64,000 nucleotides of DNA, taken from contig OX387197.1 in NCBI GenBank assembly GCA_947561715.1, forward strand, positions 19,018,266 through 19,082,265, in the 5' to 3' direction. The notes under the pieces are model-generated. The model worked only from the letters and a program-made list of their open reading frames with translations. It ran no database searches and was not told where the DNA came from. The stretch is from Ascidia mentula. Taxonomy: Eukaryota > Chordata > Ascidiacea > Phlebobranchia > Ascidiidae. Shown here in pieces: positions 3,001 to 62,391 of the stretch; position 1 is the first letter of the stretch; every line of letters begins with the position of its first letter. The position numbers and the translations under genes are program-made.

Positions 3001-4457
3001 TTTTGCCTTTCAGTTATACGTCTATTGCCACAACACCAAGAGCCACGCAAAACTCGATGTATGAACGCGGGATATGAATCACCGGAAATGGTGTCGAAGC
3101 GGAAATGTGGCTCCGTGTGAAATTTACGATCCGAGCGCCGATCACAGTTTTCATCCTCTTGCATACTCTGCACAGTCCGCATGAGTGGTGGAAACTAAGA
3201 CAAACGCTGTTTGTACAGCAACATCAAATTTCCGTTGCGAGTTTGGATGTGAATGAGCCAGTTTTCATGTTCGGTCCGACACGAATCTTTTGGCGGGGAG
3301 TGAGACTAAATGAAAATCTTCAGTTGGCCTCTAATAATTCTCCCTAATGTTGTAACTTTTCTTCCAGTATGTGACATTGCATCATATTAAGAAGCGTTGC
3401 TACATGCACCCTTTGCAAGCATTCATCTTTTAACAAGCAACATTTGCCTGGTGTAGGGGCGGCAAAATATTTTAGAAATGTGAAATAAAGCCAAGCGAAT
3501 TAAATAAACTTCTTTGGACTCGAATCTCATATCTTCATAATAAACATTATGGTGACTTAAACTTTCTATAAGATTGATGCGGTATTCACCCGACGCATCA
3601 TCTTCCAGGAAATTAATTTGAAATTGCTTGCAAACGTTGTCACAAACTGTATTTCAAAGGCATTTGTTAAACAAAGTCGTCACCTACGCAAGCGAATAAT
3701 GTACAAGATGCAAAATAGCAAACCGTGTCATAGAAGTATAAAAATTAAGAAATACAAACAGTTATTCTTCATTTTTCACGATTTGTCGATTCAGTGGGTG
3801 CAACGTTTACGGCTGTATTGCAAAAATATACATTGAAAACAGCATGGGGCATTATTTGCAAAATCCGAAGCAAGTCAAGCACAATACAGATCAAAATACG
3901 GTTCAAAATTTGAAAAAGCGTAATGAACTTTTTTCAGGCAACTACATTCACATAAAACAACATGTAAGCGAAATTAGAAACACTTCACATTTTATTTCTA
4001 ATGATGTGCTTTTGCTTTCAAACAAAATCTGGTAATGTGATGACGTTCTTTATAGATATGGAGCCAACCACACTTCAAGCGAAGGAAATTTAACCCAAAT
4101 TTTGTTTTTCCGGTTTACAACATTTCAAATCTCCTCAAATCTAAAGTTGGCAATGCGCTCAAGGGCAAACAGGTTTATAATTTTTCGAAGCAAATCTCAT
4201 AAACCAATGCGTAGACTACGGATGTGCCAAAAACTTTATCGAAAACTGTGGCATGTTTCTCTATGTCTATGTGAGCATGGAGCGGGTCAGAAACAAACAC
4301 AATATCTAATAACAGGGAGTGGTGTGATTTGTACACTACAAAATTCTTCCTAAACTTTTCAGACATACTCCGTCCTGGCAGCGGAGTCTTTTGGCTTCAT
4401 ACCGCTAAAAAAGAAGTGTTTTGAATATATTACGGCATTGCTAACAAACGTTTTCCA
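1..4457. other. Left intergenic stretch, no supported gene
   Basis: About 4.4 kb of AT-rich sequence upstream (in plus coordinates) of the claudin terminal exon. Open frames here are all short (under about 85 codons) and lack recognisable domains, splice-linked neighbours or conserved motifs. I looked on the minus strand for further claudin second, third or terminal exons and found none beyond 4458-4684. Regulatory or UTR sequence of neighbouring genes could lie here. Confidence 0.5.
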
Positions 4458-4684
4458 CTATGTTAATAGTTTGTTTACAATTTTACCTGCTATGCTTGTA
4501 GCAGTTAATGTCAAAAATATTATTTTCGTTATATTGCTTGAAATTTTGTACAACCTTTGGGGTGGCTTGTACGAATATGACGGGTAAGATTCCTCTGGCT
4601 CGCTCCTCAAATTTCCGCATGCGCCGCAAGTGAGCAGCAAACCGGCTAAGATAGCTGTAACAACACGTGACTGCTGGATGAAAT
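4458..4684 (-). CDS. Claudin terminal exon: end of TM4 and cytoplasmic tail
   Basis: An acceptor ending CAATCAG precedes base 4684 and opens in phase 1, matching the third-exon donors. The frame reads a hydrophobic run (VVTAILAGLLLTCGACG), which completes TM4 and has the juxtamembrane cysteines usual in claudins, then a hydrophilic, tyrosine- and proline-rich tail (EESYPSYSYKPPQ). The open frame continues to a stop at 4458 through a hydrophobic stretch that does not look like a claudin tail. A possible donor (CAAAG|GTTGTA) just after the PPQ motif suggests that the true tail may splice to another exon. No claudin-type C-terminal YV PDZ ligand is seen in the unspliced reading. It is the only terminal exon I could find, so both third exons probably use it. 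Confidence 0.65.
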
Positions 4685-4974
4685 CTGATTGGTCGGTTCA
4701 AACAAAGGTTTCTTCAGTATAGTTTAGCTTGTTTTTCGGGGAGCTTGTGGTAGCGTTACGAATATCTACAGACGTGTCACCTTTCCATTTTATTTTTGGG
4801 CATATTTGAGACCAATTTTTAGTCCATTTAGCCAGAATATAAAATATCCAGATTAGAAAAAAAAATCTTAAACCCAAATTCGGATAACACTGTAGTCAAT
4901 GTGAAATTTAATAGTTTTAAGCTCTGGGAAGACGACGCAAAAATTCCCCTCCCCTTTGAAATTTTAGAACTTAC

Positions 4975-5112
4975 TTATCCCCCCACAAATCCAGCCAATG
5001 TAGAGACAGGAACCGAATTCGTATTTAAACGAGTTACTGGCTTTCATCGGGTCGTAGTAGTCCTGCGTTACTTGCACAGCAAACCAGATGGTTGTGGTGA
5101 GTGTGCACGCAC
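4975..5112 (-). CDS. Claudin third exon, copy b (ECL2 and start of TM4)
   Basis: 138 nt, phase 1 at both ends, acceptor GGTCGCAG and donor A|GTAAGT. It encodes the end of TM3, the short second extracellular loop with VTQDYYDPM, and the FKYEFGSCLYIGWIC start of TM4. These match the claudin ECL2/TM4 signature (EFYNP, then KxExGxxLYxGW). It has exactly the length of the exon at 5900-6037 and is about 40% identical to it by eye, so the two are old tandem duplicates. It is followed directly by the terminal exon at 4684. Confidence 0.75.
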
Positions 5113-5899
5113 CTGCGACCGTTTGTTTGGGGCAAATAAGTTTTTTGTGGGGGACATTTTGTCGCGACTTTGCACATGCGAGAAACCTGGTGTTTTATGT
5201 CGTGTTACCATTGAAAGAAACAATTAAAGGCGATTTTAAACAAATGGGTTTGTAACAATGCATTATCGCTTGATGCGTCCTTGTTGTTTAGCAAAGCTTT
5301 ACATTCGCTTTAATGTAAACAATGTAGTTCTAATCATTTTTAGTAAAGTACTCGTATACCTTGTGATTTCAAAATATTGAAATGCCGCAAATGAAATGTT
5401 TAGGTGGTAATTTCACTTTGTTGATGATCAATACTACAAAATCGATTTGCTTTTTGCATAGCAGTGTTTGGAAGAAACTTAAGTTGCGCAAAAGTGGGTC
5501 CCAGGTTATTTTAGTCGCGTGCAAAGTCGCGAAAAATTCCTTCTCTGATCAGCTAACACACGCCGTGCCAATCCAATTGAACGTTTCACTCGTGTAAGCA
5601 GGACAACAACCACACAAAGCGGGGCATGCAAAGATTAACCAAACGTGGCACAAGAGTTATTGGAAATAGCGCTCTGTCTGGAAAGCACACACTGAAGCAG
5701 GAGTTTGGGTAAAGCAATTCTTTTGATGGCACGATCATATTTTAATGAGCCGAGTTTAATGATATTCCTGACCATGTGGTAATTTTACACTTTTATGAAA
5801 CCCCCAGGGCCAGCATTTAACGTTGTCTTACCTGTTCCTCAATAAACTGATAGGTTACAATGAGCATGACGTTACCAGTGACATTAGACAAACACTTAC

Positions 5900-6037
5900 C
5901 GAGAGCCATGCAAACCCAGCCGACGTACAAGCAGGCACCGTACTCGTACTTAAACTCGCGGTTTTGATAGAGTGGGTTGTAAAACTCCATGGTGACTTTC
6001 CAAGCGAACCAGGAAACAGCAGCACCACAAGCCACTC
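5900..6037 (-). CDS. Claudin third exon, copy a (ECL2 and start of TM4)
   Basis: 138 nt, phase 1 at both ends, acceptor CACTGCACAG and donor G|GTAAGT. It encodes WFAWKVTMEFYNPL, close to the canonical vertebrate claudin ECL2 (VTMEFFNP), then FKYEYGACLYVGWVC entering TM4. No separate terminal exon for this copy was found between 5900 and 5112; one possible short exon near 5.56 kb would cut TM4 short and was not accepted. It therefore probably splices to 4684-4458, skipping copy b. Confidence 0.8.
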
Positions 6038-7159
6038 CTGTGCAGTGATTGTAAAGAGTGCATTCATGCAATGTTTCAAAAATTACCCAATCCACGTGTG
6101 AACGTGTAATAATACATCACGATCAACGATACAGAATTCACACCGAACTGGGAATCGAAGGAAATTTCTGGAAGCTGAAAACAAAACTTAGTTCTACGAA
6201 ATTTAATCCGATAAATAGTTGTTTTTTGTATGTTGTCATTTTCCAGAAATTTCCCTTACGATTAGGTTTGTGCCGCAAGCGAAGTTTGAAATTGTGTGCC
6301 ATGCTAAGCCGGGTCAAACAGAAAACTTCCAAATCCGATTTGGTTTGCCGATTTTGTTTTTATACAAATGTTTGTTCCAAGTTAATTACTGCATTCCCAT
6401 AAACTTTTTTAGTGCTTTCGCACAAGACTCGATTATTGTCCGAGAACAACACGTGATTTCCTTTTGTTGCCATCGCATCAGATTTGAAACAGAATTTTTT
6501 TTACACGTAATACAAATAATCTGTTTCCTTTTGCACAAAAATTTAACAATGTCCAAGAGTTTAAACCAGGGTATAAAAATACTTATGAGCGAATGTTTAA
6601 AATTCAATTTAGAAATACAGCAAACCCACTATTGACACATTTCAGTCAGAGGTAAGAATTCGCTGACGCACTAGTAGAAGGCGAGCCAGTGTCAACAAAA
6701 TCATTTCCCAGACGCGAATAAGCCTTCGGCAACATAATGTAACAAGCAGCCTTGTGTTTGCTAATGTTCAAAGGACCCCCCGGCTGTGATTGTGCCCTTA
6801 CATGGAGTGAGTTATTCCATGTGTAAACAATTAAACATAGTATTTCATTTTTAGACGAATACGACTCGGAGTAAATAGACAGCAACATCAAATTGTGCTG
6901 TATATGCAAAAAATCTAAACCGGTTCTTACGTATACCCAGAACAATCAAACGTAAATTAGTGAAGTTGCCTTGCAACATGGAATTCAAAAACAAATTTCG
7001 CCAACGATTGAAAAGCCTCAAACTTCCGTAGGGGATAAACGCAACCGAAAAAGGTTGTCCATGCTTTTCTAACATACAAAATATTGCGGGCGGAGCTTAG
7101 ATATTTAAACCGGCAAAACCAAATCGGATTGGATCCCATGCCACACGTGACTTTCTAAC

Positions 7160-7324
7160 CGGCCAATAGGAAACAGGCCCCCGACACGATGCCAATAATG
7201 GACTTGGAGCGGGCTTCGTTATCAACCATTGTTGTGCATCTTAAACTGACCATTCCGACTACGAGGCCAAACAGGGACGTCACAATGGCTATTACCATAA
7301 GGGCACGTTGCGCTTGGAGATCAG
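7160..7324 (-). CDS. Claudin second exon, copy b (TM2 to TM3)
   Basis: 165 nt, phase 1 at both ends, acceptor TTCCCTTCAG and donor G|GTTAGA. It reads SDLQAQRALMVIAIVTSLFG at the start, the post-ECL1 helix and TM2 of claudins (compare the family motif LQAxRAL), then a short loop and TM3 ending in LLAG. It is exactly as long as the exon at 8046-8210 and about 45% identical to it by eye. No first exon or third exon lies between the two copies, so they look like tandemly duplicated, mutually exclusive exons of one unit and not parts of two complete genes. Confidence 0.8.
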
Positions 7325-8045
7325 CTGAAGGGAAACGATAAGGAAATTACTAAATCGGCCAAAGTATTAAAAAATGGACTGACAAGCTGCTGCATGGTGT
7401 CAACGCTGAAAGTGTAATTTACACAATCATTTTTTAACATCGAACAACTTTCAGTTTTTCAGTTCCAAAATAACTTTCACATTAGAATTACACCAACACC
7501 AGCAGCCTGTCATGGCAAAGAGAGGTCGTGGTGCAAGGGTCGTCAATAACCTGGTAAAATTTTATGGAGCGGGAGTCCCGCCTGGCCCATGACGTATAGT
7601 TGTAAATTCATCACTACAAAGCAATAAGTTTGACGACCCAGCAGCCCAACTAACGACCTCTCGTCTGCTTCTGTCAACACCAAATGTAGCAATCAAAATT
7701 GCCGTGCTCACACACAAGTTTTACAAGCCTTTCGGCTGGGGTTTGTTTAATGTGTCTAAAGCCCATCAACATGTTTTGTTTTTACAACCCAATTTGTGCG
7801 TTAGCGGCTAGCGTGGATGCCTTGCATTTCTAGCAAATATGTTGCACTTAACGCTTTTAAATTACATGCTTTACTTTTTTCCGTATTTATTGCCAAAAAT
7901 AATGCGGGTCTCATTTTTTACATCCAGACATGGCAACAAAATACCTGAAGCACTTGGTGTGGACAGAAGGAGTCTCTACGCCGGAGAGTTGCTCACTGCC
8001 CGGCGTAGCTGACAAATATCACATCAAAAACATGCGCTAACCAAC

Positions 8046-8210
8046 CGGCAAGCATAAACAGAACGCCGGCAAGGAGCGACACACGGTTCTTGGACTTCGT
8101 TCCTGGTTCCACCATTATGGTACAGTCTAGACCCATGAGAGAAATGACCACCCCGAAGAAGGAAAAGATGCAGGCGATGCACATGAGCGCTCTGCAAGCC
8201 TGGATCTCAG
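8046..8210 (-). CDS. Claudin second exon, copy a (TM2 to TM3)
   Basis: 165 nt, phase 1 at both ends, acceptor CTCAAACAG and donor G|GTTGGT, the weakest donor in the locus. It reads SEIQACRALMCIACIFSFFG, then a loop with TKSKNR and TM3 ending in MLAG. The frame stays open past the donor for about 17 codons (WLAHVFDVIF...) to a stop at 7993. A retained-intron form would therefore end after TM3 and lack TM4. Confidence 0.75.
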
Positions 8211-9211
8211 CTGTTTGAGAGGAAAATGCGAAAAATTAAGTGTGAGGAAAAAACGTTTTCACTCGTGTTTTTTTGGTGTTAGTTTCATTGTTTCATTGTT
8301 TTGTTTGTTTTTTAAGGTTAAGGTGTGGATGGTAAAAGTGTTTTTGTGTGCATCATCGGTTTGTTTTGACATTTAGCCTGTGTTGCGAATTGTGTCAAAG
8401 TCGCCCGCGTAGCTGTGTATTATAAGGTTAAGTTGCCATACGAAAGCACAGTCGGCAACGTGCCAATTTCTTTGAAGAATTAACAGGGAGTGTTTAAAAG
8501 TGGATGGAATTTTCAGTTGGGCAATAAATTTCTCCTGTTTTGTAGAACCTACACAGGAACGTCCATCGCAATAAAGCGCGCTACAATAGTGCTTGGTTTT
8601 ATGGGAAACCTGCTTTCCAACCGTTATTGTTCTCCAATAGGAGAAGCCCGGAAAACCGTCTATTTCACAGCAGGTAAGGTAAACATGTCTTACGGTTAGT
8701 CTTATCCGACCGCTTGATGAGTACACGCGCTACAGTTGTGTACTCAGAGTGCAAACACTCCACGGAGAGCTTTATACGTTCTTTGTTGGAGTCATGCGAT
8801 CCTATAACCCAGCACCCACGCTTGAAAGCTCGATATTGATTTCCAGTCGCAAGTTCAAGTGCCACATTGTTTTAAATTTTGCACTTCATTGGCCCGGAAA
8901 CAAACTATGCAAAAAATCGTGAAGGTATTATTATAGGTTAAATATGTGCGAGTTAAACACCGCCGATTGAAAAGGCGTCTCTCCAGAAAGATTTCTGCCC
9001 TAAGTAAACGTTAAACGAAATGTTTTCACACGATATGCAGCAACAGCATTTGTAAGGCGCCGCTGCGGTCGTAGTAATTTGTTCAAAGCAAGAAACATGT
9101 TTTTTCGAAATGTAATTTTGAAATTTACACCCTTTATAACAAACAACCAATCTCGCATTTTGAAAACCAAATGACCTTTAACAAAAACCAACAAACAACA
9201 ATGAGACTTAC

Positions 9212-9437
9212 AATCCAGGCCCAGGATGCTCACATCATAGTTGTCGCACTGAAAGTAGCCGGCCCTTTGACTTATACAGCGCCACCAGAGACCTTGGTAA
9301 CTGTACTGACCCCGCAGGAACTGTTCAGAGCTTACTTGTGAGTTTCTTGACCACTCAGAGTAAGCTGTTGTGAACATGATTCCCGAAAAAGACACACCTC
9401 CAATCAGAAAGCCGACGATACCGAAATTCCCGGACAT
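9212..9437 (-). CDS. Claudin first exon A (TM1 and ECL1)
   Basis: The ATG at 9437 opens 226 nt ending in phase 1 at GATT|GTAAGT. It encodes a hydrophobic TM1 (NFGIVGFLIGGVSFSGIMF), the first ECL1 tryptophan in SEWSRN, and YQGLWWRCISQRAGYFQC followed by DNYDVSIL. This is the complete claudin W-GLW-C-C signature with eight residues between the cysteines. It is the first-exon copy closest to the downstream exons. The splice to second exon a (AT..S-EIQACRAL) restores normal claudin sequence. The approximately 1-kb intron that follows holds no other supported feature. Confidence 0.8.
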
Positions 9438-11331
9438 TTTTCGTTGAATAAAACCTGTTCTTTCACAAAATTATTACAACCCAACAGAGTTCTTGGCACA
9501 AATAGCACAAGCTTAGTACTGTTGTCTGCGCGGAATAAATTGTAGTTAGCGTGAACTGAGAAAAAATTTGCCTTGCCGTGAAATAAATTAAAGTTTGCCG
9601 TCTGCAACGTGTCTGCAATGATATTTTGTTTCTACCAAAATCATCATAAATCACGCAAACGCAAGCCAGAGTTTGGTTGTGCAGCAAACAATAAACCGCA
9701 CTCAAACAAATGTTTCAAATAACATAAATTATGCCTGGTTGATTAGCGTGTACATAACCTGTTTCACACCAATTAGTTTAGGTCTTCCCAAATCACTCTT
9801 CTTCTACAGTTACTTTGATTCAATATTACTATACACAATAGCTGGCCAACAACTGGCAAACTCCACCATTACTTTCAAACGAAATTTTCCCCTAATCCAT
9901 CGCAAAACACTGCGACGTGCCTGATATGTTGTACGCGATCGACGGAGTTTGTTAATAAGTAACTCTTGCGTCGGCTCTTGTACGAGCAACATTTTCCACA
10001 GCTCGGTATGCGACACACCGACAAGTTTCTACAAGATCCGATCCTCTGCAACTTGTTTATTACGCAAAAATGGTGTTTATCTGAGTTTTACTTTTCCTAT
10101 GTGTCATAATGACGTACATAGCTTGGAATGCTATCCTTGTAAACAAGGAACTCAGCACTGGTACAGTTGAAGCAAGCATGACGTAAGTAGGGAGGAAACT
10201 TACTTGTACATAAACATAAGAGATCAAACACAACGACCACAATAAAATATGCGGCAATCGCACATTTATTATTTAGTAAATCGTAATCCGCATTAAGATT
10301 TTGTTTGTTTGCAGCGGGAATAACTCAGGACAATTTTGAAAAAGTATTCAATTTGCCTTGGTATTCGCTGTCAGATGAGCCTAAGTTTTGAAAGTTATGT
10401 ATGTGTGTAGTTCATGTACGAAAATTGTAATTTTTCGGAGGCTTTCGTTTTGTATTGGGGATATCGATTTTCAAGCAGATTTGATCGTTTTGTGCGTTGT
10501 CTTGTTGTCAGGGGTTACGTATTTGAAATGTATGTTAGTGCTGTGGTTACAAAATATGCATTATTTCGATAGCTGATAAACAGAAATAGAATAGTAGCAA
10601 AGAAAAGGATAAGAAACGTAAACAATGCTTTGTGAGTAAGAAAAGGTGCAAATCTTGAGGTAGTCATCATCGAAGAGCAGGTAGCACAGTTTGTCTCCGT
10701 TGGTCTAGCATACGTGGCTAAGACATCACTGTCAATGCAATGCCACACAGCAGGTTCCGCGTTACGTAGCAACGACGAACCAGACTGCTGTGTTTTCTTG
10801 GTGGCATTAAAACAGAGGTGGACGGCATTTTGCTTCTATGCACAAAATTTTTTAACTTTTAACTCATCAGATGCGACACAACTTTAATCCCCTTGTTTTT
10901 ATTTCAAGTATTTTAATTTTATATTAAATTTAGTTTCAGCGAGACCATATCTAGCTACAAGAGACCCAAATTTACGATGTATTTTTTTTCTAGCAGGTCT
11001 GATATTTCTTTTATTACCTCCAGGGTTGTGGGCCACTTTCAAACGTGCAATTAGCCACTGCTGCTGGCGCATGCGCCATACGTTGGCAACCCCTGCACTA
11101 AAACTTGGCAGCTTGTTGGAGTGCAGGGGTTTAGTGTTTTACCCCTGCATTGGTCACCCGTATACCAAGTAAAAAAACTGATCGGGATTCGTGTCCAGGA
11201 CATCCTGGGTTGTAATCCCGGTGTGGTCAAAAAACAACACCGGTAAAACTTACCTTGACCATGAAACAACAAAAACAATCCCTGTTATTTTGAAAACATC
11301 GATTGAAACAATTGATTTAAGCGGAACTCAC

Positions 11332-11557
11332 TGGATGTGTAAATTGCAGCTTTTCCGTAGTTGTTGCAAATAAAAATGCCCCATTTCGGTGAGAAACATC
11401 TCCACCAGACACCATTGAATGTGGCTAGACGTCCCAGCAAACCGTCCGAGATCTGCCTGTTACTGTGCGACCAATCAGGAAAGGCACAGATGAAGATGAT
11501 AAGTAGGTGACAAGGAACTACAAGAAAGTAGCAGGCTGTGGAAGCCGCGCCTGCCAT
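11332..11557 (-). CDS. Claudin first exon B (TM1 and ECL1)
   Basis: The ATG at 11557 opens 226 nt, the same length as exon A, and ends in phase 1 at TCCA|GTGAGT. It encodes TM1 (ACYFLVVPCHLLIIFICAF), PDWSHSN for the first ECL1 tryptophan, and FNGVWWRCFSPKWGIFIC followed by NNYGKAAIYT. The W, GxWW and C-x8-C residues are all present. No second or third claudin exon was found between here and first exon A. Either it splices over exon A to the shared exons, or its partners lie outside recognisable similarity. Confidence 0.75.
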
Positions 11558-12753
11558 GTTTGGGTTTGACTAAGGGCAAAAGCAACAAATGCAAAACCTT
11601 TATACAAGCTTTTCTTTTTTCCTAAACACTAATTCACTAAAAAAATATATTATTGATTTGTTAGCTGTCTGAAACTAAAGATTTTAAACGGGGGTGGCAG
11701 TATAAAATATTAAACATTATCAGAACATTCCAAACATTATTTTGAAATTCTCTCGCAAAAACCGAACACGTAAGACTCGTAAAGTACCAGATGCGGGTTA
11801 AACAAGAAATTTCTGCGAGAATTCACTCGCAATTCGTATTTTTTATATAGTTATGTCATTTTTTAACAACAAGCAGTACTGTTTCTGGATTTTTAATTTT
11901 CTTACATCTATGAACAACGTTTTCTTATTCGCCTGTTATATTCTGGTGGTAACATTATTTGCTGCCTCTAAATGAACAAACCTGTCGATTTTAAATGTGA
12001 GTTATTTACACATAGCAATACTGAGTAATGAGACCCAACCACTATAAACTCGGAAATCCACTACCTTATTTTTTGCCCTCATAGAGCATGAAATCGCCAA
12101 TAATATCTATGTACTATACCTTTTTCATTATATCCCACACAGGCGGTTGAGTCGGTATCGTTTCAATGAAGCTACTGAATCGGTCTGTTTAGCGGTTATA
12201 TTTTTTCTAGAAGTGTGTCGTGCTTGGTGAAGTGGCGTGTTGGAGTTGCCGGGAAACAGGAGAACGAATGATTTAACACGACTGGGGGAAGATTATTGCT
12301 TTTCATTGTGTGCTTTGCGGAGAAGAAATCTTTACTTTTGTTTGCCTAGCTTCAGATAAAGACAGACGTGAAGAAAATCGAGTTTCACCATGGAAAAATC
12401 ATTTTCTTCAAAAGCATTTTCTTTGTATTTTTAGGCACGTTTTGCCACTTTAATAATGCAGGATATAGTTGTTTTTTTTAACAGAGATTTTGAACTTTTA
12501 CAGCAATAAAAGCTGAATAAGGGTTTTTAAAAATTGTTGTTAGATGATCATCCAAAACTTCTTCTAAAACGTTTAATCCTCTAAAAGAAAAATTTAGAAG
12601 TAGATCAAAGGTTTTATCAAAGAAGTTTTTCGTCAATTTTCAACTGAATCCATGCACCCTGTGTCAGTTCTGTGAAGGAACCACCAATGTTTTGCTCTGC
12701 AGGATCACCACAACTGCCGGGCACGCGTTTAGTCTTGCAACTTTCTCACTTAC

Positions 12754-13012
12754 CTCCCAACTGCATTGTAGGTTTTCCGTAGTTATCGCATTTAAAGGCG
12801 CCCTCGGAAGGACTCACACAGCGGAGGAAAAGTCCATTGAATCTCTTCATTCTTCCCATCAGATTTTCCTCCAGCTGCCAAGCGCTATGAGTCCAGTCGG
12901 GAAAGAGAGTCATCCAGCAGATAAAGTAAAACATCGCCCACATGAGTCCAAGACCACAGATGGCTTTTTTCTTTCCTCCGTGTTTGTCCTCATTTCCTTG
13001 GTCGTACGTCAT
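12754..13012 (-). CDS. Claudin first exon C (TM1 and ECL1), diverged motif
   Basis: The frame runs to a strong phase-1 donor (GGAG|GTAAGT). It carries a basic N-terminal extension (DKHGGKKK), TM1 (CGLGLMWAMFYFICWMTLF), PDWTHSAW, and FNGLFLRCVSPSEGAFKC followed by DNYGKP. The second ECL1 tryptophan is replaced by phenylalanine and leucine, unusual for a claudin; the two cysteines are kept. I chose the ATG at 13012 because its context and length resemble the other copies better; an in-frame ATG at 13045 would add 11 residues. Confidence 0.65.
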
Positions 13013-13094
13013 TGTATTGGAAGCAATCTTACTCTTAATACACAACTGGCACCTCTGAATAGAACAACAGTACTGAACATTAAACTATAATTTT

Positions 13095-13405
13095 ACTGGA
13101 AAAGGTCGAAACAGTGGCCATCTGCATCCAACTGTTTATACATATCACTGAATACATGTTATTGGCCCCATGCTTGTATATTATAGTGACACGGGGCCTA
13201 GAGGCATTATTTCTATAGCTTTTGGTTGTCCATACTGTTTCCTCCTGTTTTTTTCCTGATGGTTTCACATAGTTTGGAGCACATAACAGTGAAAGTATAG
13301 TCACCACAAAGTGGAAGTCTTTGCCTGACCGTTTGGCCGGCAAGATTCTTTATAGTCACACCAAGCTGCACTGATGAGACCTTGTAGGTCGTAGCAGATG
13401 GAATT
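13095..13405. repeat. Inverted-repeat element related to the 57.8-kb MITE
   Basis: The left end (aaaggtcgaaacagtggccatctgc, read in two parts around 13101-13125) and the right end (gcactgatgagacc then ttgtaggtcg around 13367-13390) match the two arms of the inverted repeat at 57706-57879. An internal stretch around 13295-13325 (caccacaaagtggaagtct) matches its centre on the opposite strand. About 190 bp of unrelated sequence separates the left end from the rest, so this copy is expanded or carries an insertion. It lies just upstream of claudin first exon C, within its probable promoter region. Confidence 0.55.
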
Positions 13406-14681
13406 TATAATTTAACCGTTACAAGCGCATCACAGTGTGCATTTTTGAATACAAAAGTCGGTATTTTTGAAAGAGTGCGTCATCAAGAGAATTAGGTTCG
13501 TAAGCTTATTACAGGATCATCAACAAATACCATGGTTCGGCGACACCTCAGTATCTGTTTATATAACCCAACATTCAGTTTCAGCGCAAATCCCAACACT
13601 ACACAAGCAACACTAAAACTGACCTACTATACTACTACTACTACTGCTACACTAGTCTTTTACCTTCTGCATAAACACAGAACTGTTTAAAATGATGTAT
13701 CAGTGAACTGCAAGTGGAGGAAAAAAATTGTGCTAAAACTTCTGTGTCATACAACTTGCGTTCATCGTCACTGAATGTTTATTTGCAAACGAAATGTTTG
13801 ATTGCAAAAAATTTTGAAAAATAAAACTTCTGTTTCCATCGCGCAATAACTTAATTTAGTAACATGTTTTCCGACAGCTAAAGATGCTCACTTTCCAGTA
13901 ATTATTTTATTTGTAAGGACTTTCGCCAGCATAAAGTCGTCCAGGCTACTCTGCCTACTTCAGTTTTTAGTCAATCATTTGGTGTAGCCACCATTTTGGT
14001 TTCTGCAGACTTCTCTATGTCAACCACGCAGTCAGTTGCACCATAAAAAGGTGGTTGCCCAGCAATGCCCGTGACAGAACCCAGCAATCAATCATCATCC
14101 AAGAAATGTTCGGTGAATAGTAGAAATCAGACTGAAAAGGGGAGATTTAGACAAGCTATATCTTATTAAACTTGACTGGTATTGGTCCCTTTTATATTTG
14201 TAAACGTTGAGGCGTTGTAATTTTTAAATGTGATAAACGTTATATTGTTGTAAGATACGACACTTGTTTGTAATTTTCTTCAAAGTGTTTTGCATTGCAA
14301 CCACATTTTTAAATTAGTTTGTGATATTTTGCGTGGTCAGTGAAGATTTTTTTTTGTGTGTGTGTGTCAACTAATAATTGTTGCATGCTAAAGATATCGA
14401 CCACGAGATGGCGCTGCGACAGCAGAAAATTCAAAGTTTGAAGAGCGAAGACAAAGTTTGAAGAGAGTCAAGTGTTAAACTTTGGTTTGGTTTCTTGTGG
14501 TGGAGAGTGCCGGGGTTTTATTTCCCTTATTTAAAAACGTGAAACCAGCATCTAAGCTGGCAAAATGCGTTTACCAAATATTTTGTAATTGTTGTCGTTT
14601 TACATACAAAGCATTTAAAATATTTTAGTCTTATCAACCTTATATTTATCAAATTAAAAATGCTTAACATACTACACTTAC

Positions 14682-14802
14682 ATTCAACGAAAATAGTCGG
14701 TTTCCCGTAATGGTTACATGTGAAACCTCCTGTCTTCATCGACATGCACTGCCACCAGATTCCGTTAAACGTCGGCATCCGTCCGTACAGAGGATTTGAA
14801 AT
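14682..14802 (-). CDS. Claudin first exon D, second half (ECL1)
   Basis: 121 nt from acceptor TATTTTAG (phase 0) to a phase-1 donor T|GTAAGT. It reads ISNPLYGRM, then FNGIWWQCMSMKTGGFTC and NHYGKPTIF. This holds the GxWW and C-x8-C part of ECL1. The first tryptophan is encoded in the preceding exon at 15876-15769, so only in this copy is the first-exon unit split by an intron. Confidence 0.75.
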
Positions 14803-15283
14803 CTAAAATATAATCTTTTGGTGAACCTTTTCGGCACAAAATTCCCAATCTGACATCATGACCGATGTTTGCGAATCAGAGTCTCGCACTCAATACAGCC
14901 GCTTGATAGCCCCATCTAGCGGTGACATAAAACATCATAGCTGCGACTCATAGCAGACGAAGAAAGGTTTTTGTTACTCGGACCTTTAGGTCTCATTAAT
15001 CTATTTATTTCCTTTCAGGTATCCTAGAAAAGAGCAGCAAAGGAAACTTACTGAAATATTTATCTTTAGACACATATTTACAACTTCCTTGTTATTTTTA
15101 TTGAATTGCGGACTTTTTTAACATTACAAAAGAGCATTTTGCATACATTTGGTACAAAACTGGTATTGCGCAACATCTTAGCCTCAATGCGAACATACAG
15201 ACGCTGTGCCCGATAACGATAACGGATGTGTACCCTTTTAACAACACATAACGCCAGGCTTCCTAAATAAACGCGCAGTCTGG

Positions 15284-15607
15284 TTAATTTGTAATAATGT
15301 CGTGACGGTACTTAAGGTCAATTATCGCACCTGCGTGTTTGCGCAAAGATGTGTCAACAACGTTTCGCCTGAACCAATTAAAAATATCGATTACCCAAGG
15401 CCAAAGTACGTGTTGCGATAAATTATTTGCACCACCCCAGTCAGGGTAACATTTTGCGCTCGTGTCACTCACAAGGACACATACCGTCAGATACATGTCT
15501 TTAAAATTACCTACCCATATATACTTCCTATTTAAAATGAAATCTAGTGACGTGCCGACATAGTTGTAGCAAATTGACAACATGCATTGTAACATAATCC
15601 ACAACAA
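15284..15607 (-). pseudogene. Degenerate claudin first-exon-like copy
   Basis: A 107-codon open frame contains a hydrophobic stretch (MYLTVCVLVSD), KCYPDWGGANN, which resembles the PDWTHSAW of exon C, and then IFNWFRRNVV about where the others have FNGxWWxC. Both ECL1 cysteines and the NYGKP end are missing, and no strong donor follows. It lies between the two halves of exon D, in that intron. I read it as a decayed duplicate first exon; chance similarity is possible because the match is short. Confidence 0.35.
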
Positions 15608-15768
15608 CGCCGCTGTATAATTTCACTCACCAGTTATGTTATTTTATCCCAAACACAACAACACACGATAAATTCTGTTTTCGTCGTGGAAAAATGTCGT
15701 ACAATAAAACACATATTACCTTAAAACCGAAAGTATGTTTGCGTAAAATTCGAAATATCGCCTTTTAC

Positions 15769-15876
15769 CTGCCAGTTGCTTTGCGACCAGTACGGTAATC
15801 CAGTGGCTGCCAGCATTCCGCAGTGGCTGAGATATCCCATCGCAAAAGCCGCCATCCTTGTTGCTGGACTTGACAT
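15769..15876 (-). CDS. Claudin first exon D, first half (TM1)
   Basis: The ATG at 15876 opens 36 codons ending at CAG|GTAAAA in phase 0. The peptide is MSSPATRMAAFAMGYLSHCG, then MLAATGLPYWSQSNWQ, with TM1 and the first ECL1 tryptophan (PYWSQSNW, compare PDWTHSAW in copy C). Joined to 14802-14682 it makes a 229-nt first-exon unit, close to the 226 nt of copies A and B. It is the most upstream member of the array. Confidence 0.7.
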
Positions 15877-19162: not shown

Positions 19163-20267
19163 TTAAACCAGGAAATGTCGCAACAAAGTAAGTAAACAAG
19201 TGATCCATTTGACAGGACGAAGTTGCAGCCGTTCTGCATGACTAGTTGTAGCAGGGGCGGTGGTCGGTGGCGCCACGTAGTTGCAAAGCTCGCCCTTGCA
19301 GCAAGTCACTTGACAGTTTCTGTGATAATGGTATGTTAACCTTTGACAAAAACTACTTGGATTTGCGATTTCTTCCGTAGAGGCATCAACAGAAGTTCAT
19401 CAATTACAAAGATATGAAGGAAACATACCCAGACTTTAACTACACGTTATCCTAAACATGGTACACAGCAACCATGCATCAGTAACAATGCTTCCTAGCC
19501 GTATTAGATTTGTGGTCGTACACAATACCCGAAATAAATTGGTTCCGACAAGGTTGAACACTTACAGAGCTTGTAAATTTAATGAGCCGACGACGTAGGT
19601 ATTACAGTTCGCTTGGATATTGGTGCAGTTGGCTGGGCCACACTTGAAACTGTAAAACGTTTCGGGCAAACCTGCGGTAAAAAACAAACGCATTCTTAGC
19701 TCATGCTGGTTTAAAGCAAGCAGTATGATGGGGAAACCCACTTGACAAATATCAAATCTATCATTTGCTAATGCTTCGTCAGATGAAGAATGGAGGGAAT
19801 TTCAACATTTAAGTTACGTTCGGTTCGGTTTATCGGACCGGTTGGGGGGAAACACTATGCACACAACGAACATATTATTAGAGTTCTGTTATAGATATTC
19901 CCTAATTTTTTTACACTTTCAAGACATACACACTTTAGGTTTTTATCAACTAATTTGTAATTTTCTAACAACTACGACTTATTTTACTTCTTGAAATATC
20001 TTGAAATGCATTCAAAAACACCTAGAAAGTGTTATTTGGTAACATAAGTCTTATAACAACATAAAGTTTCAAAGTTGAATAAACAGAGCCCATACCTGGA
20101 TAGTTAAATGTTGCCGTGACACACTGAGAAGCTGTGCAGTTTATTTGTTTGACTTGGGATGACTTTTCACTTTGGGATCCCTCGTAACAACGTACTGCCT
20201 CGCACAATGTTGTTCCAAGGAGAATAAAGACCAGTGTCCGCGAAAGATTGTTCTTCGTCATCGTCAT
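19163..20267 (-). CDS. Ly6/uPAR-type three-finger protein, three exons
   Basis: Exons 20267-20096, 19671-19566 and 19319-19163 join in frame (phases 1 and 2) to 144 residues. The N-terminus is a signal peptide (LSRTLVFILLGTTLCEA). The mature chain starts VRCYEGS and has exactly ten cysteines, ending in CQVTCCKGELCN, the CC-x4-CN hallmark of LU domains. A Pro/Thr-rich linker and a weakly hydrophobic end (WITCLLTLLRHFLV) follow, which may be a GPI-anchor signal. Family members act as surface or secreted ligand-binding three-finger proteins; the ligand here is unknown. All junctions use GT-AG. The gene lies head-to-head with the vWA-EGF-ZP gene, about 2 kb away. Confidence 0.82.
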
Positions 20268-22393
20268 GTCAATTGCTTTTATGAAATCGCCTTTTTGACA
20301 AACGTACAGGTTTGTTTCGCGTTGTGTTTTACAAAATCAATACAGCACTACATAATATTACACCTGAGGAATGACTCCCAAGTGTTTAAAACGAAAACTG
20401 ACAGAACCTTATCTACAACTTGCATATATAAAACCTGTGAGTCTATTTGATAAGGCTACTACGTCAGAGTTGACATTTTACCTGTGATAAACTTAGGACA
20501 TCGAACTTTTAACCCTTTTGAAGCTATGTAAAGCACTGCTGGTGCAATTTCAACCTGTGATTATCATCAGTGTATCACACTGAACTATTGACAGCATCCT
20601 TTCCAAATTGCTTTTGTGTGAATCCACACACAAGGTACATTATCAGCAAACTGTAGATTGGATACGCCTCAACGTATTTAAGGTCACATGGATAATAACT
20701 TTCCATGGAATCCATAAGCTAACAGTAAAACAACAAGTGAGTGCACTGAGGCAACTGAAGGTGACAAATACTGCACTATCGCTGCCATGAGCTACTTCTG
20801 ATAATTTATCACATAACTACCAATGGGAAGTCGCGTATAATTTCCTGACACCACATAATCCGTGCTTACGATCACCCGGTAGATTTCTGCGGTAAATGAT
20901 GGCAGCTCAAATCATTTTGATTTTTTTTCAATTTTGCAACGTGCAGTTGGTTACCAGTAAAATATAAAAACAGATCACAAAGCAAAAGGGAACAAAACGC
21001 GTGCGAACACCAAATAACACAGTACACAATGTATGTAATAATAATTAAATAAAAATAGGTTTCAAGAAGCAGTACACTCATCTTTCCTCCTTTCCTCCTT
21101 ATCACAACAGAGACTTAGATACACAGGCGAGCAAAACACAACATATTTTTTACACGATGACCTGTAATCTTTTTTGCTTTCTTTTGAACCTAGTCTTGTG
21201 GCAATCCAAATGCAAATCAACATTGGCAAAACGTAACACACTTAGCCCATGTTACTTGCCGCAACATCATTTTAGGCTAAACATGATCACTCGTCCACGC
21301 TCGAAAAACTTTACCCTACGTATCGGTGAATGACACACTTCCCCCACTCTTAACAGGACTAAAGGGAAAAAAATCGTTCTGTAAGTCATGTTTCACTAAC
21401 TGCTTTTCGTTATTCATACCGGACCTGTCCATCAAATGACGCTTTATATACGCGTAGAATGACGGGCGCGGTTGTTTCAGTTTTGCTCAGACCATGTCAG
21501 TTACACATGGTTCTGATATGTCCATCGGTAGGTGAGTATTTGTCGCATGTCTACATATAAATTCTTGGGGTAAGTCTACATTCCGATGGTATCGTCATTT
21601 TTTTTCACTTCTCCCACTCAAACTGCAGCTTAAGTAACGTCCGTTTTAGCATCGACCAATTAGTTTATTGAAAAGTGGTTCAAAAACTTGATAAAAACGA
21701 ACAAATCTACTGTCGTCTAATTTAACAGGGTCTTTAATGAGCCTGCTCCGTCGTCTGTATTGCTCTGATGACAATTCTTTTCGTATCGACATTGCCTCAT
21801 AGCGAATAAAAAATATTTGTGCTAAAAATAAATTGTTAACGTCTGCAAGGAATTTGAGCAGGAAGATCACCAACGGGCACATCACTATACTTGATTCCAA
21901 GTAAGCATGAAAAGCTTCTTCTAGAACGCCAACACACTCCAATCAAACATCCATGCATCCTTCAGGCAGGCGCGGTTATTTCAGGTTAATTGTACCGATG
22001 GCTTACATTCCTTCACTTACCGACACAGGGCTTCAGGACCACGAAATCAGTTCCTTTTTGCGCCTGTGCGTTAAGGTTGTTTGTGGTAAGTTTACGGTGT
22101 TTTTGTACTTTGCATTTCCTTTCTTATTTTGGGCTTCCTTGGAAAAGTTTTCGTGTCTGCGCCGGAAAAGAAACAACTTGACAACATTGTGCGATGGATT
22201 CTTGGTAAGCAGCATTTGAGTTTCATAGTGTGACCTATAACACTGATAAACGTACAACAACGATACGCGCACACAGACTATATTTAAAACAACCTGAATC
22301 CTACGAAGTCCAAATGAACATGTTTTGGACAAATCTGTTAAAAGCGCATAAAGTGTTTACTGACTTGCAAAAAAGTGGTATGTTCTTTTAAAG
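20268..22393. other. Divergent intergenic region with possible upstream exons
   Basis: About 2.1 kb separating the Ly6-type gene (minus) from the vWA-EGF-ZP gene (plus). Two short plus-strand segments with good donors, near 22010-22079 (ending TGTG|GTAAGT) and 22159-22202 (ending CTTG|GTAAGC), could be upstream exons. Neither joins in frame to the signal-peptide-like exon at 22394, so I do not call them. Promoters for both genes should be here. Confidence 0.4.
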
Positions 22394-25300
22394 GTTTTTG
22401 CCGTTCGTGCTGATTTTTCTGCTGGGCACCGAAAAAAGTAAGTTACATGACGGCACTCATAATATAAGAACTTAAATTTAAATTGATATCTTGAAGTATA
22501 CTCTAGCCACCAGTAAGGAATGTTTATTTGTATTCCGAAGTCATGTTTTCCAGCAAATATTGAACTTAAACTAACAATCGTCGTTTCTGTCACAGAGATC
22601 TCCCAGGGACAAATGATCGATGTTGTTGAAAGGCGATCGTTGTACCGAAAGCAAATTGATCAACTCGAAATTGATAAAAATTGTAAGTCGTTTGTCATTA
22701 TAGTTATGAGCAGTGGTGGGATTCAAATTTTTTGTCAGCCGGTTCTATCACAAAAGTCATATTTTTCAGCCAGTTTTGTTACAAAAATCCATTGACAGTA
22801 GCCAGTAATGCTAACCGGTTCGCTGATCTCAAAAATTTCGTGAGACGGTTCTATGTAGAACCGGTGCGAACCGGCTGAATCCCACCACTGGTTATAAGTA
22901 TAGTTATAAGTATACTTCGCGTGTGGTCAAACCCGTGTTTGAATCAACATAACAATAGTTTTGATTTTCGCCACTGGTTATGTGCTTTGGTGAAGACGCC
23001 TTAAGTACAGTACTGTAAGTTACAAACGAATTGTATTGGTTATTTGAGTGGAAACACATCATGCTTGGTGGTTTATAAACACTCCTCTGACTCCCATAAA
23101 CTGCCAAACAACTTTAAACCAAATGTATTTGAAACCAACGATAGCGAACCAACCAACAACTAAACAATTTGACTGTGGTAAAGCGCCAATCCAAGCACGT
23201 TGTCTCTTCCCGATTATTTCCTGTCTGCCTTTGCGGTTTTCTCCTCTTGGCGCTCACTGCTCTGGAAACGCATCATGCGTGGTGGTATTATTAACTTTCA
23301 TATAACATGCTGGTATAGATTGTGTGGCTGCTGATAAGCTGTTGAACATCGCAATTTTGATGGACACGTCGATGTCCACCAATGGAGGTGTAGCAGGAGG
23401 CAATCACCAAGATTTCTTCAACACTGTTGATTACGCATTTCATTTGACTCGTGCTTTCGAATTAGATGCTGACAAAACACGGGTAAGTCATCGTAAACAC
23501 GGCGTTCATGTTGACCATAGAAATCTAACTGTGTGGCATATTGTCCGCTGTTAAGGTGGCACTTGCTCGTTATGTGAACAAAACTGAAGTGATTTCCAAC
23601 TTTAACGAGGGAACAAGTCACTCAGCTTTACAGCAAATATTCAGGCAACAATTGCCTCGGGTGTCCGGGAACCGTTTTAACACAGCAGAAGCTCTCACGT
23701 ACGCTGCGGAAAAGATTTTTACAAGTCAAAACGGAGTGGTCGACAATGGCGCCACTAAGGTAAACAATTTAATGTTGAGATGGTGAGCTTAGTACTCATT
23801 TAAGCGAATAACTTTTAACTTCAAGTGGATGCTACAAATGCGTGGTTTAGATTTATCCCCGGCTTTCCAGATTCTTGTTCTGATCACGTTTACCAGAGTA
23901 CAGAGCGATCTCCTTTTCATCAATGCAAGAAATAAAGTAGAGAATTCCGATTTGGTGGTATACGTAGCTGCAGTGGGAGAAGCGAGATTGTCGAGGGACC
24001 TGCTCATGTCGTTGGTGATCCAGGGTTTTACCGACTACATTGAGTTCGCCGTTTCGACGGAAATGGCCAGCAGCAACTCCATGAACATGGCTCTAATAGA
24101 TTAGTGAGTTGCTTTAATTTTTTAAGCTTTAACTGCGGCAATATAGGAAACTTTGTCGACAAAATATTACAAGTCTCACTTTAGAAAAACTGTTTTTTGG
24201 ACAAAACAGGTTTATATTGTTATAAGTAAAAGGTATATTTTAGTAAGACAACATGCAACAAAACCCTTGTTATATTCGATCAAAAAAATACGTTTTACCT
24301 TAACTATTCGTCGTCTCTTGTAGCCACGGAGGGTGTGACCAGTGTATTCCAAACCCGTGCGTGAACGGTACCTGCATGTCGCCCAAACGTTTTCAGTGCA
24401 AATGTGACGTTGGCTTTCAGGGATTGACATGCAATAGGACTGGTATGTTATTGTTCTTGTATTTGGAAGGTTCATTATATTTTACAAAAACCCAGTATGG
24501 AAAGAGCTTTAATCACATCGCCTTTATCAGCAGCTTAAAACGGCACAAAGTATACTTGAAAAAAACTTAACATTCGCTACTGGTTTGCAGATTATTGTAT
24601 CCAGGCAAACCCATGTCACGGCGAAACATGTCACAACCCAGTCGACAAAATTATCGTCTGTACTTGCACTAAACCAGGCCGGTACGGAGAGTTTTGCCAG
24701 TTCGTTGATCACTGCGAAGCGGTACCGAATGCATGCCTAAACGGTGGCACATGTCAAACCAACAGATCCGTGCCAGTGACCACTTGCATGTGTGCAACAG
24801 GATATTATGGTAATCGTTGTGAGCATGAAGATCCTTGTGTATTGACCAACTACTGCCTAAACCAAGGAGCTTGTTCTCACGACATTAATACGCATCAAAC
24901 TTCATGTACATGTGTGTTTCCTTTCAACGGTGCTAAATGCTCGAATTGCACGTGTCAGAACGGTGGCACTTGTACCTTGGCCGTTGCGTCTGGTCGCTGT
25001 CAGTGCCCGACAAATTGCAACGGAAGTTTATGCGAAAACTGCCTTCCCTACTGCACCATAAATCCGGGTGTGTGTCAGAACGGGGCAACCTGCAACAGCA
25101 CGGGTCTGACGTACAAATGCTTGTGTCCAGCTAACTGCGTTGGAAGGCACTGTGAGACCTGCAGTGGCGGCACGTGCAATATGCCAAGCACACCTTGTCC
25201 TCTTGGTCACATTTGCCAAGACCTTCCCTCCGGCGGGTTTGTGTGCGCATGTCCCCAGGGCTGCTCCGGTCCGAACTGTCAGCAGTGCAGTTATTGCGCA

Positions 25301-28300
25301 ACCCGGCCTTCGCCCTGTTTGAATGGGGGTACATGTGTCGACCGACCGCCGAACACTTTCGGTTGCATGTGCAAACCAAACTACTCCGGTCCTCTGTGCG
25401 AGGTTTACGTGTACTGTGAAAGCAACCCACAAGCATGCCGAAACGGTGGCACGTGTCAGAACGTGAATAACGACTTTGCATGTCAATGCCAACCTCACTG
25501 TAGCGGTCGCACATGTGACACGTGCCTTTTGCCGTGCGACCGGGATGCAAGTTTGTGTAAAAATGGAGCTGTATGTGAGAATATTCCGATGAGCTTGCGA
25601 TATCCCCAAGGAGGGTTTGTGTGTCTGTGCACCCATGGATGTTCAGGGACGACATGTGAACATTGCAATAGTTCTTGTACAGGGGTGGTATGTCAGCATG
25701 GCGGTAATTGTATTTCATCGGGATTTGGGCCCAGCTATTGCAATTGCACGAAGCTCTGTTATGGCCAGAGATGTGAAAGATGCTTACCATACTGTGTGAT
25801 CCATCCACTTGTCTGCGCCAACGGTGGTACGTGTCAGAACCTACCGGGTGGACATTACGCATGCCAGTGCACAGAGCAGTGCACTGGGCAAAACTGTGAC
25901 GTTTGCCCTTGTCAATCATACCCATGTTACAATGGTGGGACATGCATAGCGACGCAGGGAACCAACCCCAGATGTCAATGTACAAGTGACTACACTGGAC
26001 AAAACTGCGAGAGTGGTAAGTTTTTGTAAAACTAGATTGGATTATTGCGGTTATGTTTATGAATTATAACGTTTAGTATCATTAAGCTGTAGGTAATATT
26101 TTGAATTGTTGTTCAACTAAAGTAAATATTTAGCTTACCGTTACCAATGGGCTGTGCTTTGGTTTCATCAACTTGGGTTTTCGAATTCAGCTGGAAGTAA
26201 CAACCCCAGAAACCCGTGTCTCCCAAACCCGTGCTTGAACGGTTGCCTTTGCACGGAATCCTGTCGTCATTCTGGTGGTTACGTTTGCAAAGGATCGCTA
26301 GGGTTTATCGGAAAAAACTGTGAAATCAGTAAGTTTTGGACACGTATCTTTATCATGTTAACGCTTCTCTTTATTTTCAATGTAAACGTTATTGTTTTAT
26401 CAAGAACTATCATCGTCAAATTATCGGAACTTACTATTAATGGGACATATGTATTTACACTGATTTGTGAATATACAATTTACATCAAATCGTTGGCCAG
26501 TAAACAATAATTAAAACCCTTACACACACGCGCTAATACGCAATAACCAAAATTTTACTGACCTTTGTTTTGAAATAAAATGAAATGAATGTACCTATAT
26601 CCTTAATTGACCATGCGTGTGATGTGATATTTATGATCCATTTAGGTCCACCCAGTTTAGACTGCCTTCCACAGTCTATTACAGTTCGTGTTCCAGAGGG
26701 TTTCGCAAAAGTGAAGGCACGTAGTGGTAACAGTAGGATGGAGATGTTCGTTGGAAGTTTGGATTCTGTAAACCCCGCTCCCGGATGTTCCGGTAAGTGT
26801 TGTAATAAGAAAAATTAAGAAAGTTTTGTAGCGCTCAACCAGTTTAAGCAAGGCATTTTTACACGACTCCTCCCGACGCAACAAAGTTTTAAGTTCACCA
26901 CTGTTGATATTTAAGTTTTTCCGAGTTTTGTGAGCTTATCCCGACTCCAGGTGATTCTCCTGATTGGCAGAGCTATGTTTAACATTTTATATTAAAGAAC
27001 CCATATCTGCTAACTTTGGAAAACATTTTTCGTCAGTAAAACTGATTCAATTCAATCTCTCTTCACCAAATCACAACATTGACCAGTTCTGTCAAACGAG
27101 ATTGGGGAGAAAATAATGTTTTAATCCTTTGACGAGGACCTGCCTCAACAACAAAACAAAACTTAATTCGATTGTTCATATTATAGCCACCCAAACCATC
27201 AATGGCGATTATCGCATCACCATGAATCTTCCAACGGGGTGCGCTAACGTTAAAAGACAGAGAAGCGGATCCACGGATGCTGTGTCTGGCGAAGTCTGGA
27301 TGAACCTGCTTCCCAACGGCCTCCAGGGCTACAGCTTGGACATGCCGGTGCCGATTGCATCATTCGAATGCGTCTACGGTGGAGATTTAACTTTCGTCAC
27401 TTCTCTGCGACCTGTGTTAGTTGCAGTTCCTTTTGTTTGTATTAAAGAAATCCGGCTTTGTGTGGATTCGCACTACATTATAAAAACGTTCCGAAAAAGT
27501 GTTTGCCTGTTCGTTAATTGCTGTATTGATTGAAATCAATTTACATATTTTGGTATGAATGCTTTTTTTCAGTTTGGCGGAAATGCCCACAATCTCCGAG
27601 GAAATACGTTTCAAGCCACAAGTCAGTCTGTGCAAAACTTCTGCCTGTCCGACCACATGTCCGTCAGGGTTGTCGATAGATCGGGAAGCTGTGTACACTG
27701 TGGGTGAAATTATTCACGTCATGATCAGTTCAAAACGCTTGGGAAACTTTGACAACAGAGTTAGTGTACTCTGGTTAACCTTGGCTGCACAGCATGAGTT
27801 ATCACGACTACTATTTCTCATTAGGCCGCAATGCACGCAACCATCTCTCGTCTACGCATCTCCTGTGAGGAGTTTCCTTCACCAAACACACCTGGCCTTG
27901 AGCTCGTGAGCGGCGGATGCACTTCAACCAGACCGGATGTTTCCAACGTAAAATTCTCGCTCGGTCGTAGCGGAATTGATGACGTCATCTGCTTGTCGTT
28001 TAAGGCGATGAGGTTAGGAGTGTGCAAGAGTCGCTTCTTCCTTCACGCCGATCTGCGGATGTGTGCCGCCAAAGACCTTTTGGTAAATCAATAGTTTAAT
28101 ACATTGTTCCTCTTTCGGCCTGATGTAAGCTTTTATGATAGTAACGGTGGCGGCATTAATCGTTTCCATGCTTAAAACATTGTTCGGGTCTTGTTTATGT
28201 GGCAATTTGAAACAAAATCAATTTTTAATAAAAAAAAAGTCAAAAACGTCTTAATGTACCCACATGCTGTTTTTTTAAATCAGTCATTCTTGAAACATTT

Positions 28301-61938: not shown

Positions 61939-62391
61939 ACTGCCAACTACTTTTACTGCTGTGAGAAATAAGCAAATGAATTGTTTGTACAATTTATAAT
62001 GTCAAAAGCAAGTTTCAAAATTTATTTCTAACTACCAAATAATACATTGTTTGGTTGAAATACCATGTTCAGTTACACAAGAACAGTTTGTAAATCACTT
62101 CTTACACATGTTCAACATTTTGAACCACTGCGCACATGCACGATCCAAACTTTAAGGAAAAACACAACTATGGTTGCATTAAAGGCAATTTCCGAAATTT
62201 ATCCAAAATGAAAATTTTCGACCATTGAGTCATTCAAGTTAGGCTACATGTAAAAAGAACATAGGGACACATCTGGTACGAATCTGCATTCACGTCAAGC
62301 AATAATTACAAAACCAGCACTTCAAACAAACGAGGGGTGTGTAAACAACAGTTCATTGTAAACCCAAAGTTTGACTAACACATGCAAATAG

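What the first reader, a model, noticed from the sequence alone, without database searches (positions are those of the whole stretch)
4458..15876. Claudin locus built as an array of alternative first exons over shared downstream exons
Four intact first-exon units (A-D), each with its own ATG, TM1, ECL1 and phase-1 donor, lie in tandem upstream of only two second exons, two third exons and one visible terminal exon. ECL1 sets claudin charge selectivity, so swapping first exons would change pore properties while keeping the rest. This resembles the UGT1A or protocadherin layout, which I do not know to be described for claudins. What is seen: exons, motifs and phases. What is inferred: that distal first exons splice to the shared exons.
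Basis: partly seen in the sequence, partly recalled or inferred. Interest (0 to 1): 0.87.

Follow-up and report, generated by a model that had tools for sequence, protein, structure and literature searches.

The report
Sea-squirt claudin gene with swappable exons
A sea-squirt gene for a tight-junction pore protein carries four interchangeable front ends and two copies of each of two middle pieces, so one gene could make many pores; front-end swapping is known from human claudins, but I found no report of it to this extent.

Summary
On the minus strand lie four claudin first-exon units (D, C, B, A), two second exons, two third exons and one terminal region, sorted by class.

Two annotated Clavelina lepadiformis proteins use different first exons (C and B types) and third exons (3a and 3b types) on identical second-exon and last segments. 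A Ciona protein matches D, 2a and 3a best. The same genome holds at least two more class-sorted arrays (3/2/2/1 and 4/1/1); in one, joining both third exons shifts the frame, so they must be alternatives.

No transcript of this species was seen. A's use and the choice between 2a and 2b are inferred; the Clavelina models keep 2a and 2b together, against strict exclusivity.

Contig lengths fit Ascidia mentula, not Ciona. New variant of a known kind.

The parts
15769..15876 (-). First-exon unit D, part 1 (ATG, TM1, start of ECL1); donor CAG|gtaaaa, phase 0
   Evidence: whole unit D 53% to Ciona (Ci1) and 64% to P0004 (Lg1)
14803..15768 (-). Intron inside ECL1 of unit D (phase 0); of five ordinary claudin first exons viewed, the four whose intron I could read by eye have it elsewhere, just before the GLW motif
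14682..14802 (-). First-exon unit D, part 2 (rest of ECL1, FNGIWWQC...C); donor T|gtaagt, phase 1
12754..13012 (-). First exon C (TM1 + ECL1, FNGLFLRC), phase-1 donor
   Evidence: groups with ClavC and P0008 (99/99)
11332..11557 (-). First exon B (TM1 + ECL1), phase-1 donor
   Evidence: ClavB 59%
9212..9437 (-). First exon A (TM1 + ECL1), phase-1 donor
   Evidence: nearest are first exons of the C67 array (44%); no partner found in another species
8046..8210 (-). Second exon 2a (TM2 + start of TM3), 165 nt
   Evidence: Clavelina 2a 69%
7160..7324 (-). Second exon 2b, 165 nt
   Evidence: Clavelina 2b 81%
5900..6037 (-). Third exon 3a (end of TM3, ECL2, start of TM4), 138 nt
   Evidence: Clavelina 3a 71%, Ciona 64%
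4975..5112 (-). Third exon 3b, 138 nt
   Evidence: Clavelina 3b 62%
4555..4654 (-). Shared exon 4 (end of TM4 and start of tail), phase-2 donor AAAG|gttgta chosen by the alignment of the tail
4359..4404 (-).
   Evidence: tail agrees with C67 exon 4 (...KPPQKSANPNRTEYV) and Clavelina (...STKTEYV)

Best explanation
This is one claudin gene of an ascidian, probably Ascidia mentula. Each transcript takes one of four first-exon units (TM1 + ECL1), then second-exon and third-exon copies (TM2/TM3; ECL2/TM4), and ends in a shared exon 4 and exon 5 carrying the PDZ-binding tail. The class-sorted order, compatible phases and conserved copies indicate that the array arose by exon duplication inside one gene. 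Joining of different first and third exons to the same other exons is seen in annotated Clavelina gene models. That each first exon has its own promoter, that 2a and 2b are usually alternatives, and that the swaps change pore charge and contacts are inferred. One-of-each choice would give up to 4 x 2 x 2 = 16 proteins.
For: Order and phases. No convincing private exon in 83.9 kb (best other match E 0.092). Clavelina P0001/P0002: C- or B-type first exon and 3a- or 3b-type third exon on identical 2a+2b (109 residues compared) and an identical last 44 residues. Among the rows compared, copies score best with their namesakes across species: reciprocal for B, 2a, 2b and 3b with Clavelina, 3a with Ciona and D with P0004; C, ClavC and P0008 form one group. 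Ciona F6WVA9 finds this locus's 3a, D2 and 2a as its best genome matches for those parts; for exon 4 the match is weak (E 0.01). The layout recurs at C67 (3/2/2/1) and C69 (4/1/1, exons 3 and 4 fused); in 29.7 kb around each no further match is better than E 0.17. At C67 both third exons end in phase 0, as the single exon 4 requires; 3x+4 and 3y+4 are open, 3x+3y+4 is not, and 43 nt separate them. All 11 first-exon units of the three loci end in phase 1.
Against: No transcript of this species was seen. Both Clavelina models carry 2a and 2b in series, against strict one-of-two use of exon 2. Exons 2 and 3 in the window are multiples of 3, so frame does not force a choice there. Unit A has no cross-species partner. 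Of the copy groupings only C passes both support thresholds. Donors of 2a, 2b and exon 4 begin gtt, a weaker form (weakness recalled). I do not know how the Clavelina proteins were annotated.
Confidence: 0.78

Rival explanations
1. Exons 2a and 2b are both kept in series, at least in some transcripts, so the locus makes a longer claudin with two extra membrane segments; only first and third exons are alternatives.
For: Both Clavelina models contain 2a+2b in frame. Exon 2 copies are symmetric here (165 nt) and at C67 (159 and 162 nt). Hydropathy of P0001 and P0002 shows further hydrophobic stretches.
Against: Ciona F6WVA9 and P0004 have a single exon 2. In the AlphaFold2 model of P0001 (mean pLDDT 52.9, 7 rows) the 2b TM2 helix at 151-169 is poorly predicted, but so is ECL1, so this says little; the control fold never ran. 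Gene predictors can join mutually exclusive exons (recalled).
Confidence: 0.2
2. One promoter with an upstream non-coding leader (or a trans-spliced leader) feeds all four units, which are then alternative second exons rather than true first exons.
For: By eye, B and C have pyrimidine-AG stretches before the ATG. Spliced-leader trans-splicing is known in tunicates (recalled).
Against: With an 18-site acceptor matrix, the best sites before the ATGs of A, B, C and D are equalled or beaten by 27-67% of random places (14-88% over all 15 ATGs tested). The matrix is weak (several true sites score near zero), so this is inconclusive.
Confidence: 0.25
3. Separate tandem claudin genes whose private exons 2-4 were missed, or which lost them and are decaying.
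For: Whole claudin genes seem to stand in tandem elsewhere in this genome (L045, L046, L050).
Against: Sorted order, no convincing further exon in 83.9 kb, intact frames and splice sites, copies conserved in other ascidians for all but A, and shared segments in Clavelina.
Confidence: 0.05

Closest known systems
CLDN10 (claudin-10a/10b)
   Same: Exons 1a/1b exchange TM1 and most of ECS1 and leave the rest identical; ECS1 charge differs (10a 7+/1-, 10b 4+/5-; PMC6862131 passages). Here ECL1 charges from the signature W are A 4+/4-, B 5+/1-, C 6+/4-, D 3+/1-.
   Different: Two first exons in the major isoforms, and no duplicated exons 2 and 3 that I know of; here four plus two plus two. Orthology to CLDN10 was not tested.
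CLDN18 (18.1/18.2)
   Same: Alternative exons 1a and 1b (PMC9153115 passages).
   Different: Two first exons only.
UGT1A and clustered protocadherins (recalled)
   Same: Tandem variable first exons over shared downstream exons.
   Different: Downstream exons are constant there; here exons 2 and 3 are duplicated too. Separate promoters are not shown here.
Dscam-type mutually exclusive exon clusters (recalled)
   Same: Internal exons duplicated side by side, one copy taken per transcript; required by frame for the third exons of the C67 paralogue.
   Different: Two copies per cluster; exclusivity in the window itself is not shown.

Membership tests
Claudin (PMP22/EMP/MP20/claudin, PF00822) | Match to the family profile | tested here: met
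4 of 4 joined isoforms of alignment A1 match PF00822 at E <= 0.001; member 1 scores 85.3 bits against a cut-off of 26.7.
Claudin (PMP22/EMP/MP20/claudin, PF00822) | ECL1 motif W-LW-C-C (as in PMC7140793) | tested here: met
   W and both C are present in all four units; A has GLW, B GVW, D GIW; C has GLF, and so have ClavC and P0008. B, C and D thus each vary one motif position
Claudin (PMP22/EMP/MP20/claudin, PF00822) | C-terminal PDZ-binding YV (recalled) | tested here: met
   TEYV on the new exon 5
Claudin (PMP22/EMP/MP20/claudin, PF00822) | Forms tight-junction strands | not testable with these tools
   Needs expression and imaging
Claudin gene with alternative first exons (CLDN10/CLDN18 type) | Two or more coding first exons joined to the same downstream exons | tested here: inconclusive
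   Met in the Clavelina gene models P0001 and P0002. In the window species only layout, phases and conservation were seen, no transcript
Claudin gene with alternative first exons (CLDN10/CLDN18 type) | Separate promoter for each first exon | not testable with these tools
   No transcript starts available; acceptor scan inconclusive
Mutually exclusive exon cluster | Only one copy per transcript | tested here: inconclusive
   Third exons: required by frame at C67, one per model in Clavelina. Second exons: both kept in the Clavelina models
UGT1A/protocadherin layout | Variable first exons over wholly constant downstream exons | tested here: not met
   Exons 2 and 3 are duplicated here; the C69 paralogue with 4 first exons and single later exons does have that form

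The most novel reading that the evidence does not exclude
Ascidians run a combinatorial claudin system: several paralogous loci, each with sorted arrays of alternative exons, choose ECL1, TM2/3 and ECL2 modules independently, and some transcripts keep both second exons to make a six-pass claudin with no vertebrate counterpart that I know of.
Probability: 0.2. Interest if true: 0.82.

Novelty: new variant of a known kind. Interest (0 to 1): 0.62.

Why it matters
Humans have 24 claudin genes (PMC11203038 passage); this sister-group chordate may get part of its pore variety by exon choice within single genes. Exon borders fall between functional modules (ECL1 for charge, ECL2 for contacts), so module swapping can be tested directly. 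Most copies are conserved between this species and Clavelina or Ciona, which suggests that the isoforms matter, and gene models may mis-join them.

Tried and rejected

Led nowhere: acceptor scan before the ATGs; AlphaFold2 and Foldseek of P0001, a weak model whose nine best matches are claudins with TM-scores of only 0.30-0.37 by query length; repeat finders. The control fold of P0003 never ran. The first scored only the 8000 candidates sharing most words, so relatives may have been missed.

Search for prior reports: (20 of 84 papers listed; 2 of 2; 12 of 28; 1 of 1; 15 of 547; 4 of 4) showed no title or abstract start about a tunicate claudin gene with exon arrays; of these papers I looked inside PMC11203038 alone (passages). 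One search lists a medaka pmp22 paper with alternative first exons (PMC2714311, listing only). The library lacks most subscription journals, so absence is not shown.

Full report
What is there. Reading the minus strand from 15876 downwards, four coding first-exon units (D, C, B, A), two second exons, two third exons, exon 4 and exon 5 lie in class order. Units A, B and C are single exons of 226, 226 and 259 nt; D is 108 + 121 nt around a 966-nt phase-0 intron. All four end in phase 1, the second exons are 165 nt and the third exons 138 nt, and the junctions 1-2, 2-3 and 3-4 are phase 1. The 4 joined isoforms that I scanned, of 16 possible, match PF00822, and their profile finds 12 distinct solved sequences, all named claudin (claudin-19 best, E 1.5e-42).

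Correction at the 3' end. A broad exon-4 profile gave a sub-threshold hit (E 0.47) just beyond it. There an acceptor is followed by ...GMKPKDSAARTEYV and a stop. Joining from AAAG|gttgta at 4555/4554 restores frame and a tail that aligns with the Clavelina and C67 tails. Other donors in the interval also keep frame, so the exact donor is a judgement from the alignment.

Is it one gene? Outside the known exons the best matches in 83.9 kb are E 0.28, 0.42, 0.32 and 0.092 for classes 1 to 4. The sorted order is one of 3780. The strongest evidence comes from other species. Clavelina lepadiformis P0001 and P0002, both listed with a 12,235,537-base contig, have C-type and B-type first exons, 3a-type and 3b-type third exons, and are identical over the 109 residues of 2a+2b that I compared and over the last 44 residues. 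They are gene models; I have not seen their reads. Ciona F6WVA9 and P0004 (1527-base contig) have D-type first exons with 2a-like and 3a-like exons. P0008, of unstated species, is a further C-type exon that seems to run on past a phase-1 donor (the donor is inferred from the residues SK). Between the window and Clavelina, identity with the namesake is 59-81% (six copies: B, C, 2a, 2b, 3a, 3b) and with any other copy of the class 50% or less. A has no partner and D none in Clavelina.

Recurrence in the genome. C67 (L040, minus strand) has first exons at 7925-7700, 5788-5563 and 4947-4731, second exons at 4017-3859 and 3676-3515, third exons at 2768-2638 and 2594-2464, and one last exon. Its third exons are 131 nt, so both together shift the frame, and 43 nt is very short for an intron. 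C69 (L043) has four first exons over single later exons, and L047 has two first exons 4.9 kb apart over single later exons. What look like complete tandem genes also occur (L045, L046, L050). The genome searches score only the best candidates, so I give no total of claudin loci.

History. B, C, D and their relatives form one group (91/99, below the threshold for full support); A sits near the C67 first exons (44% to 67F1). Only the C group passes both support thresholds; B 90/74, 2b 95/78 and 3b 91/86 fall short, and 2a, 3a and D are unresolved. By score, 67_2x is nearest to 2a and 67_2y to Clavelina 2b, which hints that the second-exon copies are older than the C1/C67 split, but the scores are low.

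How it probably works. Choice of first exon sets TM1 and ECL1, choice of third exon sets ECL2, and exon 2 sets TM2 and the start of TM3. By analogy with CLDN10 (PMC6862131 passages) the differing ECL1 charges should change ion preference. Seen: anatomy, phases, conservation, shared segments in Clavelina models. Inferred: promoters, use of A, exclusivity of 2a/2b, pore effects.

Source. C1, C2, C67, C69 and C73 are 27,920,005, 19,883,144, 22,722,200, 22,343,712 and 15,447,500 bases; the Ascidia mentula table lists 27.92, 19.88, 22.72, 22.35 and 15.45 Mb (PMC11109543 passages). Four of five agree to the printed digit and one differs by 0.01 Mb; the total is 195.8 Mb in 79 contigs against 197.0 Mb in 95 scaffolds. 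The other contigs were not compared.

Noticed in passing
window 24560-26026 +: Open frame of 489 aa with EGF-like repeats (PF00008, E 7.4e-29).
   Followed up: no
window 61234-62001 - and 59487-60050 -: Frames matching AtuA (acyclic terpene utilisation, PF07287) and the AtuA ferredoxin-like domain (PF23544), probably exons of one gene.
   Followed up: no
window 62395-62943 -: NAC-domain protein (PF01849), BTF3-like (name recalled).
   Followed up: no
window 29595-30356 -: MOSC-domain reading frame (PF03473).
   Followed up: no
window 19166-19396 - and 20025-20336 -: Two frames with a Cys pattern like Ly6/uPAR proteins by eye; no Pfam match.
   Followed up: partly
G000 C69:14508500-14518400 (L047): Possible further claudin array with two first exons 4.9 kb apart and single later exons.
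   Followed up: partly
G000 C2:1167225-1430263: 14 of the 55 claudin-like matches lie in this 263-kb stretch, probably a tandem cluster.
   Followed up: no
P0001 and P0002: Clavelina gene models keep 2a and 2b in series; either a mis-join by the annotation or a real longer claudin.
   Followed up: partly
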